From Salvator merianae (taxonomy: Eukaryota > Chordata > Lepidosauria > Squamata > Teiidae): a stretch of 64,000 nucleotides of DNA. Below the pieces are notes generated by a model. It made no database searches. It saw nothing but the letters and a program-made list of their open reading frames with translations, and was not told where the DNA came from. Both the position numbers and the translations under genes were made by a program. Shown in pieces: positions 3,841 through 40,141 of the stretch. Position 1 is the first letter of the stretch; each line of letters starts with the position of its first letter. The stretch covers positions 44,029,024 through 44,093,023 of the forward strand of contig QVOM02000116.1 in NCBI GenBank assembly GCA_003586115.2, given 5' to 3'.

Positions 3841-4008
3841 GGAGCAGCTGTAGCTCAGCAGTAGAGCAATTGCTTGAAAAGCAGATGCTTGCAGTTTCAA
3901 CCTCTGGCATCTCCCCAGAAGAAAGCAATTGCAAATCATTTCTGCATCTTTGCCAAGAAAACTGCATGGATGTAGTGGACCCTGATTTAATGGTACCAAA
4001 GAGCAAAA
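3841..4008 (+). mobile_element. tRNA-derived SINE
   Basis: The head carries a Pol III A box (TAGCTCAGCAGTAGAGCA) and a degenerate B box (AGTTTCAACCTC) about 45 bases further on, the spacing seen in tRNA-derived SINEs. The body continues through a TTTGCCAAGAAAACTGCATGG block, which is also present (inverted) in the SINE at 44.3 kb. It is probably a squamate tRNA-SINE. A functional tRNA is excluded because the arms do not pair and the body runs on for more than 100 bases. Confidence 0.7.
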
Positions 4009-7051: not shown

Positions 7052-7431
7052 AATTTCCCCAAATCTTCATACTTTCCTCCAGCAACAGCTGGCAAAATGT
7101 GTTGGGCAGTGGAGAGATGGCATACGGATTACAATCGTATTTGGTGCCATAAAGTCCACTATGTGTATGAGCACTGCCCTTCTTTTCTACTGCCTTACCA
7201 TCTGCATTTTGCCTGTCTTCACTGTGCTCCTCACAGGGCAGATGTCTCATGTCCCTGAAACATGGAGATAGAGAGATTCCATGTGTTTCATAATACAGAA
7301 GAGCTTATTTTCCTGTTCCAAATGGAAATGTCCCACAATCTTAAGCTATAATCTTACAAGTTATGGTTAAATGAAAACCCTTTGACCCCGTCTGTTCTCT
7401 TCTTTGTACAATATGGTCTTCTAGCTATGTG

Positions 7432-12470: not shown

Positions 12471-12570
12471 TAGGGGGGCACTTTGAAACTGATGGCATGC
12501 CTGGTTTGGACATTACTTCCCTGCAAAGAGTCTGCAGAAATGGTAGAATGTAGGCTTTCACAGCTGGTTT

Positions 12571-12810
12571 CAATCTCATTTGTAGTAGTTTTTGGGCTGT
12601 TGTGCTGAGTTCTATAGTTCTTCTAAGAACCTAAGCTTTTGGACATAGCTACGATGTCCATCTTCAGAGGATCTGACTTCTTCAGTTGTTTTTGACTCTT
12701 CCAGAAGTCAGATCCTCTGAGGATGAACATCGTAGCTATGTCTGAAAGCTTAGGTTCTCAGAAGAACTATAGACCATGGCACAACAGCCCAAAAACTACA
12801 AGTGAGACTA
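12571..12810. mobile_element. Palindromic PLE terminus with fossil hammerhead ribozyme
   Basis: A 240-bp inverted repeat with arms of about 110 bases on an axis near 12692. The right arm, with the central CAGTTGTTTTTGACTCTTCC, matches the end of the PLE copy at 40.0-40.14 kb. So the right arm is a plus-strand 3' terminal piece and the left arm an inverted partial copy, a known habit of Penelope-like elements. The right arm holds CTGAGGA (12717-12723), a decayed stem II around loop CGTAGCT, GAAA (12744-12747), GCTT and AGG, in the order of a minimal hammerhead core. On the minus strand, the left arm keeps CTGAAGA and a perfect 6-bp stem II but has lost the G of GAAA. Neither can be assumed active. 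Confidence 0.72.
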
Positions 12811-12888: not shown

Positions 12889-13147
12889 GAGGCTCTTTCT
12901 ACACTGGGCTTTATTCTGGGATATATCCCATAATAGGGGCCTGCCATCCTCATGCTAGTGCAGATTATTTGTGTGAACTGTCTAGGAATGAGAAAGCTTG
13001 GAGTGCTTGGGTGAATGGTAGCGGTCTGCACAGAATGCCTAATCCTGACTTTTGTTCTCAAGTGGAATAAAAATCTGCATTAGCATGCAGACAGCAGGCC
13101 CCTATTCTAGGATATATCCTGGAACAAGACCCAGTGCAAAAAGGGCC
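12889..13147. mobile_element. MITE A3, split by an insertion
   Basis: Family A arms lie at both ends: CTTTCTACACTGGGCTTTAT at left, and TGGAACAAGACCCAGTGCAA with the final AAAGGGCC at right. The centre, about 12968-13075, is not family A; it is the roughly 105-bp block shared with repeat G at 10.2-10.3 kb. The simplest reading is that G inserted in the loop of the palindrome. Alternatively the G block could be an internal part of a longer ancestor. Confidence 0.65.
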
Positions 13148-38952: not shown

Positions 38953-39292
38953 CTACAGCCTAAAGCTTAACAGATAGAAACTATCAACAGCAGTTTTGGG
39001 ATGTATGAAGGACTTGACACCAGAAGACCTCACTATCTTCTTGGCAATTATTCTTAGATAACAAGGCCAATCACTTCCTGTTTTTTTCTGGGTCCTATTG
39101 GGGTTAGTGACTCGGTGTATGTCCTCAATGCGATGTCCGTATCCCAAAAGTGCTTCTTCAAGGTGCTCTGTTTCAGCCGCTAGGCACTCTGGTTCTGCAA
39201 TTCTCATCACCCTCTCTATTAGCATACTCTTCTGCACAGGGTGATGGTTGGAGTTGGCATCCAGTTATCTGACTATGTGTCTGTCTGATTTA
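38953..39292 (-). pseudogene. Penelope-like element fragment, end of RT domain and linker
   Basis: The minus strand reads SDRHIVR, a stop, then LDANSNHHPVQKSMLIERV, MRIAEPECLAAETEHLEEAL and GYGHRIEDIHRV. It then runs through a Lys/Thr-rich spacer into WPCYLRIIAKKIVRSSGVKS and HPKTAV. This order (TDR...NSNHHP.QK, a Leu-Glu-rich helix with GY, then the LPY..g...kI...gi...f.P segment) is characteristic of PLEs between the reverse transcriptase and the GIY-YIG nuclease. The in-frame stop at the left end of the frame and the lack of a nuclease show a dead fragment. It points away from the plus-strand fragment that starts within a few bases of 39292. Confidence 0.82.
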
Positions 39293-40141
39293 GGCGAGAG
39301 GAAAGCCTTCCTACCTTATGTCATCAGGTAACAGACCGCATAGGCAAATTGTTACACACAAAGGGGATACACATAGTCTACAAACCAACTACAAAAATTG
39401 GCCAAATGCTGAGATCATCCAAGGACAGACTAAACCCACTTTCTACTCCAGGCATTTACAAATTCCCATGTGAATGTGGTAAAGTTTATGTAGGAATGAT
39501 GACCGGCACTATAGAAAAAAGAATATGTGAACATGAGAGACACGTACATCTCATCCAAACAGACAAGTCCTCAGTAGCAGAACACACATGGTCTGAAGAT
39601 CATAAGATCCTCTTTGAAGAAACAGAAACTATAGACAGAACCAGGGGATTCCATGAATTAGCTACCAGGGAGGCCATTGAAATAAAATGACACCTTCATA
39701 ATTTTAACAAGAGACAAGGACTAGCTCTCAGCCACTGGTGGAAATCCCTCTACAAAAACAGTCAGCAAAAGAGACTAAACTAAACAAACCAGAAACTAAG
39801 GATAAATGCTATGTCTGGTCACCAGGGATAACACTAGTGAATAGTGGTCAGGAAAGTAATAACAACCCACTATGAACACCTATACCTATAAAGACAATGG
39901 TTACAGCCAGAAAAATACACCAGCACCTTGTTATCTAAGAATAACTGCCAAGAAGGTAACATTCCAAATGGCCATCTGTAAGAAGGGTGACAAGATCCAG
40001 CACACCATCAGTTGTTTTTAACTCTTCCAGAAGTCAAATCCTCTGAAGGTGGACATCGTAGCTATGTCCAGAAAGCTTAGTTTCTCAGAAGAACTATGGA
40101 TCACAGCACAACAGACCAAAAACTACTACAAATGAAATCCA
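39293..40141 (+). pseudogene. Penelope-like element, GIY-YIG endonuclease end and 3' terminus
   Basis: The plus strand reads, after a 1-base frame break near 39310, VTDRIGKLLHTKGIHIVYKP, then GIYKFPCECGKVYVGMM (about 39451-39501), the GIY...YVG core of the PLE endonuclease. The PCEC pair and the later AEH...H give the Cys/His set seen in PLE nucleases. RICEH holds the likely catalytic Arg, and TREAIEI the likely Glu. A TGA at 39688-39690 interrupts the frame, and HLHNFNKRQGLALSHWW continues beyond it. The stop fits a CGA-to-TGA CpG decay. After the coding part come about 200 bases and then a terminus (40007-40141) shared with 12.57-12.81 kb. The reverse transcriptase is absent, so the copy is 5'-truncated. 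Confidence 0.88.
40043..40081 (+). ncRNA. Fossil hammerhead ribozyme in PLE terminus
   Basis: In order: CTGAAGG (40043-40049; consensus CTGANGA, last base changed), stem II TGGACAT / ATGTCCA with loop CGTAGCT (a perfect 7-bp stem), GAAA (40071-40074), the self-complementary AGCT, and AGT where other copies have AGG. CCT before CTGANGA and AGG after GCTT would give stem I in tandem or dimeric copies. PLE termini are known to carry minimal hammerheads with very short stem III. One core change suggests that this copy is inactive or weak. Confidence 0.6.

What the first reader, a model, noticed from the sequence alone, without database searches (positions are those of the whole stretch)
12571..12810. 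Hammerhead ribozyme cores in a palindromic Penelope-like terminus
Three copies of one PLE end (two arms here, one at 40.04 kb) together give a clean minimal hammerhead: CCT, CTGAAGA, stem II TGGACAT/ATGTCCA with loop CGTAGCT, GAAA, the palindromic AGCT, then AGG. Each copy has a different lesion: a decayed stem II in the right arm, one lost G in the left arm, and one core A-to-G change at 40.05 kb. This suggests an active ancestor. The right arm keeps the catalytic-core boxes intact. Because the arms are inverted, a transcript from either strand would carry a core.
Basis: partly seen in the sequence, partly recalled or inferred. Interest (0 to 1): 0.82.

Follow-up and report, generated by a model that had tools for sequence, protein, structure and literature searches.

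The report
Decayed hammerhead ribozymes in Penelope ends
Three worn-out end fragments of a Penelope-type jumping gene, probably in a lizard-like genome, still show the outline of the small self-cutting RNA (hammerhead) that such elements are already known to carry at the start of their gene, so this is a new example of a known thing.

Summary
Three copies of one Penelope-like element (PLE) end lie in the window: a head-to-head pair (L, minus, ~12540-12681; R, plus, 12682-12808) and D (plus, to ~40138), which follows PLE endonuclease coding. Together they outline a minimal hammerhead without helix III; no copy is intact and Rfam finds none. Two corrections. Stem II is more likely 6 bp (GGACAT/ATGTCC) followed directly by GAAA, whose CpG decayed to TG in R and CA in L; a Salvator protein with this N-terminus supports that frame, and the ATG starts at core A9. 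L runs ~30 bp past the given start: it has the optional PLE tail, R and D do not. Four relatives' proteins keep a Glu-Thr register with codons that allow another complementary stem II, indirect evidence of compensation. This matches published PLEs, above all Anolis PAc. A transcript of the palindrome folds on itself (-168 kcal/mol), so 'a core on either strand' does not imply a working ribozyme. New member of a known kind; the tail+/tail- pair fits two-strand priming.

The parts
12540..12681 (-). Left arm (L): 5'-truncated PLE end with the optional ~30-bp tail; outer end approximate
   Evidence: blastn to R and D; Salvator P0220 matches 12664-12527 at 80% over 46 aa, beyond the 12573 limit of similarity to D
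12630..12670 (-). Hammerhead remnant in L: CCT CTGAAGA T GGACAT CGTAGCT ATGTCC AAAA GC TT AGG; the place of G12 reads A (12640) in this reading
12682..12808 (+). Right arm (R): 5'-truncated PLE end without tail, head-to-head with L; outer end approximate
   Evidence: blastn; alignment and translation
12714..12754 (+). Hammerhead remnant in R: both catalytic boxes intact (CTGAGGA, GAAA); stem II has one A.C mismatch and one G.U pair
12723..12806 (+). Start of the PLE ORF in R, read without any skipped base (MNIVAMSESLGSQKNYRPWHNSPKTTSE)
   Evidence: matches P0220 in part
12540..12808 (.). Head-to-head palindrome; 240 nt of it (12571-12810) fold as RNA to -168.2 kcal/mol
39307..39774 (+). PLE GIY-YIG endonuclease coding (3' part of element D), one in-frame stop at 39688-39690
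   Evidence: P0001-P0006, L001 and P0129 among others match here
39775..40138 (+). 3' region of element D up to its end in the AC-rich stretch (tail-less); end approximate
40040..40081 (+). Hammerhead remnant in D: A9 reads G (40049), extra A at 40070, stem I AGG reads AGT
39064..39321 (-). PLE linker between RT and endonuclease, inverted directly 5' of the endonuclease part of D; limits approximate
   Evidence: tblastn of L001, P0129, P0140, P0165

Best explanation
These are dead copies of the 3' end (pLTR plus ORF start) of a Penelope/Poseidon-type PLE. In the working element this stretch joined one tandem unit to the next and encoded two things at once: a minimal type I hammerhead without helix III (CCU CUGAAGA U GGACAU-loop-AUGUCC GAAA GC UU | AGG) and the ORF start (SDPLK-MDIVAMSESLG..), with the start codon beginning at core residue A9 and the predicted cut after ORF nt 29. 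Reverse transcription starts inside the RNA in the AC-rich stretch, so insertions end about nt 89 (R, D) or, with the tail, about nt 118 (L). The palindrome most likely arose when cDNAs primed at both target strands were 5'-truncated and joined head to head; all three copies then decayed. Shown here: the copies, the frame, the tail difference and the lesions. Inferred: tandem order in the ancestor, its self-cleavage, a possible need for the element protein or a dimer, and two-strand priming.
For: Copies and identities. D lies downstream of PLE endonuclease coding. Column-shuffle test 0 of 20000. Frame: P0220, a Salvator merianae CELF4 model, has two tandem copies of this N-terminus, and L matches it over 46 aa at 80%. 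Anolis P0129 and P0165 (from its second Met) keep Glu8-Thr9-Ser10 in register and the later SG-ESL motif. Protein-level stem II: 10 box matches among 1269 Met positions in 225 proteins; 4 of 10 allow at least 5 of 6 Watson-Crick pairs against 6.2% of random residue sets, binomial P 0.0023. Those 4 lie at an ORF start (P0129, P0165) or near the C-terminus (P0136, P0199); P0199 keeps PLKM, i.e. codons compatible with CCN CTG AAG ATG, and the window copies read SDPLKM (L), SDPLRM (R), SNPLKV (D) there. [quoted passage not shown] head-to-head inverted pLTRs with a 31-bp tail on one of them (PMC3846280); HHR motifs in all available PLE sequences, usually minimal and lacking helix III (PMC6155905).
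Against: No Rfam hammerhead match. No copy is intact. The three copies show no compensatory change in stem II. With 71-72 nt of context the best fold of neither consensus is the hammerhead (6-bp form -8.9 against -15.5; copies L -10.4 against -16.4, R -0.6 against -15.1, D -1.1 against -12.8). With 58 nt stems I and II form, but two further pairs tie up core G5 and G12. The 6-bp reading leaves an unpaired U between A9 and stem II, unlike the textbook core (recalled). No RT coding was found and no target site duplication. The protein test rests on 4 loci, freely chosen codons and a threshold set after seeing them; P0220, the nearest relative, fails its box (Lys at residue 8 in one copy, the other starts at residue 6); of the six failing box matches two are at residue 1 (P0020, P0036) and one near a C-terminus (P0166); P0136 reads QKM, not LKM. 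For PAc, ribozyme mutants did not affect insertion in vitro and no RNA-seq reads began or ended at the cut site, so the ribozyme's role is open.
Confidence: 0.88

Rival explanations
1. One reading: the ancestor had a 7-bp stem II (TGGACAT/ATGTCCA) then GAAA; L lost a G and R lost an A independently.
For: D reads exactly so, and the 7-bp hammerhead fold is the more stable (-10.8 against -8.9).
Against: This frame hits a stop at codon 29 in D and in blastp matches P0220 only over MDIVA, while the other frame matches over 30 aa at 83%; only the frame without the A was used as a database query. It needs two independent indels at one spot in arms that probably share one template.
Confidence: 0.1
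2. The palindrome arose by self-priming (snap-back) on one template rather than by priming at both target strands.
For: Proposed for head-to-head PLE pairs in Adineta vaga (PMC3846280).
Against: L has the tail and R does not, so the two arms end at different RT start positions; a copy made by snap-back of one strand would need a further explanation for that. The R arm holds 21 bp more 5' sequence than L. Neither point is decisive.
Confidence: 0.35
3. The hammerhead resemblance is accidental; this is only coding sequence for the PLE N-terminus.
For: No Rfam match; the region is coding; no compensation among the three copies.
Against: 0 of 20000 column shuffles match; stem-compatible codons recur in register in divergent proteins; a PLE hammerhead at this place, with cleavage activity, is published for PAc.
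Confidence: 0.04
4. The palindrome is a functional host or element feature today, such as a hairpin small-RNA source or a both-strand ribozyme.
For: Very stable hairpin; weak miRNA-precursor matches far below gathering scores.
Against: All three copies carry different lesions and L lacks G12. Constraint and transcription were not tested.
Confidence: 0.03

Closest known systems
PAc, the Poseidon PLE of Anolis carolinensis and its hammerhead (PMC11167929)
   Same: Hammerhead overlaps the ORF start; [quoted passage not shown] C3 and G8 before the ATG; insertions end in an AC-rich stretch with an optional tail. The endonuclease part is 44-50% identical to Anolis P0129, which may or may not be PAc itself.
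   Different: Another PLE family; only decayed 3' ends here; activity untested; if the cut is counted from the A of the ATG the positions differ by 3.
Minimal type I hammerheads of PLEs (Cervera and De la Pena 2014, not held; reviewed in PMC6155905, passages)
   Same: Helix III missing, place in the terminal repeat.
   Different: Here all three copies are broken; an unpaired U follows A9 in the preferred reading.
Head-to-head inverted pLTRs of Pen2a_Av in Adineta vaga (PMC3846280, passages)
   Same: Inverted pLTRs with a 31-bp tail at the 3' end of one of them; pLTR includes the start of the ORF.
   Different: There the pLTR holds 12 codons (22 with the tail), here about 30 (about 40 with the tail); there it flanks an element with a 9-bp target site duplication, here a solo pair with none found.
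Newt and axolotl type I hammerheads that act as dimers (PMC6155905, PMC7229834, passages)
   Same: Helix III too short for a good monomer; tandem copies could share it through AGCU (inference).
   Different: The arms here are inverted, not tandem, so they cannot form that dimer in one transcript.

Membership tests
Minimal hammerhead ribozyme (type I, PLE kind) | Catalytic boxes CUGANGA and GAAA, U16.1 and H17 (recalled motif) | tested here: inconclusive
   Complete in R; G12 reads A in L; A9 reads G in D. Complete in the inferred consensus.
Minimal hammerhead ribozyme (type I, PLE kind) | Stem I and stem II | tested here: inconclusive
   6-bp stem II and 3+3-bp stem I in the consensus; one mismatch in stem II of R; no compensation among the three copies; compatible codons in 4 relatives' proteins.
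Minimal hammerhead ribozyme (type I, PLE kind) | Match to an Rfam hammerhead covariance model (a detection aid rather than a definition) | tested here: not met
   No hammerhead match. The consensus itself could not be scanned. Whether Rfam detects published PLE hammerheads was not tested.
Minimal hammerhead ribozyme (type I, PLE kind) | Self-cleavage at the predicted site | not testable with these tools
   Needs transcription in vitro.
Penelope-like element (Penelope/Poseidon) | GIY-YIG endonuclease linked to the repeated end | tested here: met
   Endonuclease coding 39307-39774 followed by end D, by similarity to PLE proteins; the Pfam GIY-YIG model itself did not match the window protein.
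Penelope-like element (Penelope/Poseidon) | Telomerase-like reverse transcriptase | tested here: not met
   Six long PLE proteins (P0129, P0140, P0165, P0142, P0200, P0225) match only the linker and endonuclease part, apart from one weak P0140 match at E 0.07 elsewhere. Element D is truncated, so this speaks to this copy, not to the family.
Penelope-like element (Penelope/Poseidon) | pLTR that contains the ORF start, tail, tandem or inverted arrangement | tested here: met
   ORF start by match to P0220; L tail+, R and D tail-; head-to-head pair.
Penelope-like element (Penelope/Poseidon) | Target site duplication | tested here: inconclusive
   None found at the palindrome, or at D with a narrower search, by exact or near-exact matching; published PLE insertions can lack it.

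The most novel reading that the evidence does not exclude
The tail+/tail- head-to-head pair is a fossil of one integration event in which the PLE enzyme primed reverse transcription at both cut target strands, starting at the two different internal RNA sites, and the two truncated cDNAs were joined. This would be a genomic trace of the two-strand priming seen in vitro for PAc. The inverted 5' part of element D could be a second trace of the same kind.
Probability: 0.4. Interest if true: 0.5.

Novelty: new member of a known kind. Interest (0 to 1): 0.3.

Why it matters
The ribozyme itself is a further case of a published class. Two points add something. The ribozyme may leave a readable trace in PLE protein N-termini (Glu-Thr/Ser register and codon-compatible stem II), so PLE hammerheads might be traced through protein databases where DNA models fail. 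Head-to-head pairs with one tail could test how PLEs integrate; PMC11167929 says that steps after priming are yet to be validated.

Tried and rejected
Rfam on the window and on the two regions at E up to 10: only a tRNA-like match at 3844-3915 and sub-threshold matches, several of them miRNA precursors; rejected as explanations of the palindrome, which is simply a long hairpin. More copies: viral contigs by the endonuclease and by a DNA pattern gave none; genome contigs gave one contig, L001, useful as protein reference, without an Rfam match at E up to 5. Pfam and PDB sequence searches of the endonuclease gave nothing useful. A target site duplication was sought and not found. A working ribozyme today was rejected because every copy is damaged and the palindrome pairs with itself. 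Paper searches that led nowhere.

Full report
What was checked. The window is AT-rich with CpG observed/expected 0.16 and holds three copies of one repeat end. L lies on the minus strand, R on the plus strand directly beside it with the 5' ends together, and D at 40 kb. Identities are 88 to 91%. D follows coding for a PLE GIY-YIG endonuclease at 39307-39774. Relatives of that protein were found by protein search (6 proteins with E at most 0.001 among 9 candidates), in one contig of the genome collection and by tblastn with longer PLE proteins.

The hammerhead. The boxes are present, but no copy has a complete motif. The descriptor scan, which requires stem II right after A9, finds 0 motifs with an exact core in the window; with one core mismatch it finds one unrelated place (7299-7345) and none of the three copies, and 25 of 100 shuffles have at least one such match; with two mismatches and stem II of at least 6 bp it finds only L. 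The loose pattern matches only R, and 10 of 100 shuffled windows have at least one such match. Rfam reports no hammerhead at gathering scores or at E up to 10 in either region. The signal lies in the alignment. If each column may take any letter seen in a copy, a descriptor that allows one unpaired base after A9 is met twice on the sense strand and not on the other, and in 20000 column shuffles it is met 0 times. That descriptor was written after seeing the sequence, the shuffles do not keep dinucleotides, and the test says nothing about compensation. The three copies show none.

The reading frame corrects the stem. L reads TCCA-AAA, R TCTG-AAA and D TCCAGAAA. Both arms are one CpG transition from TCCG-AAA. 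That form leaves R open as MNIVAMSESLGSQKNYRPWHNSPKTTSE, whereas the form with the A stops at codon 29 in D. A protein search (106 proteins with E at most 0.001 among 227 candidates) returned P0220, a Salvator merianae CELF4 model whose N-terminus holds two tandem copies: MSESLGSQKNYRTQHNSSKTTTNEIETGHESLHS and MDIVAIFKSLGSQKNYRTQHNSPKTTTNEIETGRESLHS. Against the fetched proteins it matches the frame without the A at 83% over 30 aa, and the other frame only over MDIVA. The query contained the N-terminus in the frame without the A and not the other frame, so the find was directed; the second copy and the tail part were not in the query. The ancestral motif is therefore most likely CCT CTGAAGA T GGACAT CGTAGCT ATGTCC GAAA GC TT | AGG, with the A of the ATG as A9, one unpaired U, a 6-bp stem II, and stem I continuing past a T.T mismatch into AGA/TCT. 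An extra core nucleotide in another hammerhead is known to me only by a title (De la Pena and Flores 2001, seen in a reference list).

Lesions. In L, G12 reads A; G12 is described as the general base (PMC6155905, passages), so L is probably dead. R has both boxes but one mismatch and one G.U in stem II. D has A9 changed to G, one extra base and a weaker stem I. With 71-72 nt of context neither the 7-bp nor the 6-bp consensus, nor any copy, has the hammerhead as its best fold. With 58 nt of the 6-bp form, stems I and II do appear in the best fold, together with two pairs that tie up core G5 and G12. PAc, for comparison, cleaved only when its protein was added; its ribozyme mutants did not change insertion in vitro, and no RNA-seq reads began or ended at the cut site (PMC11167929).

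Protein-level trace of the ribozyme. If the ATG is at A9 and GAAA is Glu8 plus the first base of residue 9, then residues 2, 3, 6 and 7 must allow complementary codons. Of 1269 Met positions in 225 fetched proteins, 10 meet the box pattern. Four of these 10 allow at least 5 of 6 Watson-Crick pairs: P0129 (Anolis, residue 1, 5 of 6), P0165 (residue 2, 6 of 6), P0136 (residue 285 of 331, 5 of 6) and P0199 (residue 262 of 295, 6 of 6). The other six allow at most 3; of these, P0020 and P0036 are at residue 1 and P0166 at residue 277 of 296, so position alone does not separate the groups. P0220 itself fails the box (Lys at residue 8 of its full copy). Random residue sets reach 5 or more in 1239 of 20000 (6.2%), which gives P 0.0023 if the ten are independent; the threshold was set after seeing the values. 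P0136 and P0199 carry the motif in C-terminal stretches, as expected if the frame runs into the next tandem unit. P0199 there reads PLKMEPTEGSETL, and the window copies read SDPLKM (L), SDPLRM (R) and SNPLKV (D). P0136 has QKM instead, a point against. Codons are chosen freely in this test, so it shows compatibility, not the DNA.

The tail. L keeps its match to P0220 through ETSCESLHSTI, out to about 12540, whereas R and D leave the element near ORF nt 89. L thus ends near nt 118. PAc starts reverse transcription in an AC-rich stem loop 111-118 bp into its ORF, and its tail is the stretch between two start sites. In Adineta vaga Pen2a an optional 31-bp tail sits on one of two inverted pLTRs, and head-to-head is the most frequently observed inverted arrangement (PMC3846280, passages); there the pLTR holds fewer codons (12, or 22 with tail) than here (about 30, or 40).

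How it most likely works. In the living element the stretch joins tandem units, the ribozyme can cut the RNA just inside the next ORF start, and the enzyme starts reverse transcription further in. PAc cleaves and extends both target strands in vitro. A head-to-head pair whose two ends stop at different RT start positions is what two-strand priming followed by joining would leave. Snap-back self-priming, proposed for A. vaga, is a serious rival. No target site duplication was found. The pair as RNA folds to -168.2 kcal/mol against a shuffle mean of -58.9 (plus strand), so a transcript of it would pair the core with its antisense.

Novelty. A PLE hammerhead at this place is published for PAc (PMC11167929: the main text section was read), and PLE hammerheads in general are reviewed (PMC6155905, PMC7229834: passages; PMC3846280, passages, does not mention ribozymes). 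The 2014 discovery paper was not held. In the held open-licence library, searches for PLE hammerhead with lizard returned only PMC11167929, with turtle only two unrelated papers, for PLE with twin priming none, and with exonization none. I file this as a new member of a known kind. The host is probably a squamate, judged only from the nearness of P0220; this was not tested further.

Noticed in passing
39064-39321, minus strand, beside 39307-39774, plus strand: The PLE linker preceding the endonuclease is inverted directly 5' of the endonuclease part of element D, as in twin priming.
   Followed up: partly
39034-39066 and 39926-39958: A 33-bp inverted repeat (94%) puts a piece of the element's 3' region next to the inverted linker, as if by a template jump.
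   Followed up: no
P0220 (Salvator merianae CELF4 model, UniRef A0A8D0BBQ1): The predicted protein begins with two tandem copies of this PLE end, a possible exonisation or a gene-model error.
   Followed up: no
3844-3915, plus strand: tRNA-like stretch just above the Rfam gathering score (29.5 against 29), probably a tRNA-derived SINE.
   Followed up: no
about 12918-12950 and 13100-13126: Imperfect inverted repeats around GATATATCC and AATAGGGGCC beside the palindrome, seen by eye, perhaps a small DNA transposon.
   Followed up: no
L001 (JAGLBD010000131.1): A contig filed under a Pseudogulbenkiania genome bin encodes PLE pieces in both orientations, so it is probably eukaryotic contamination.
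   Followed up: partly
P0015, P0194: PLE-like proteins labelled Escherichia coli by the source, probably contamination.
   Followed up: no
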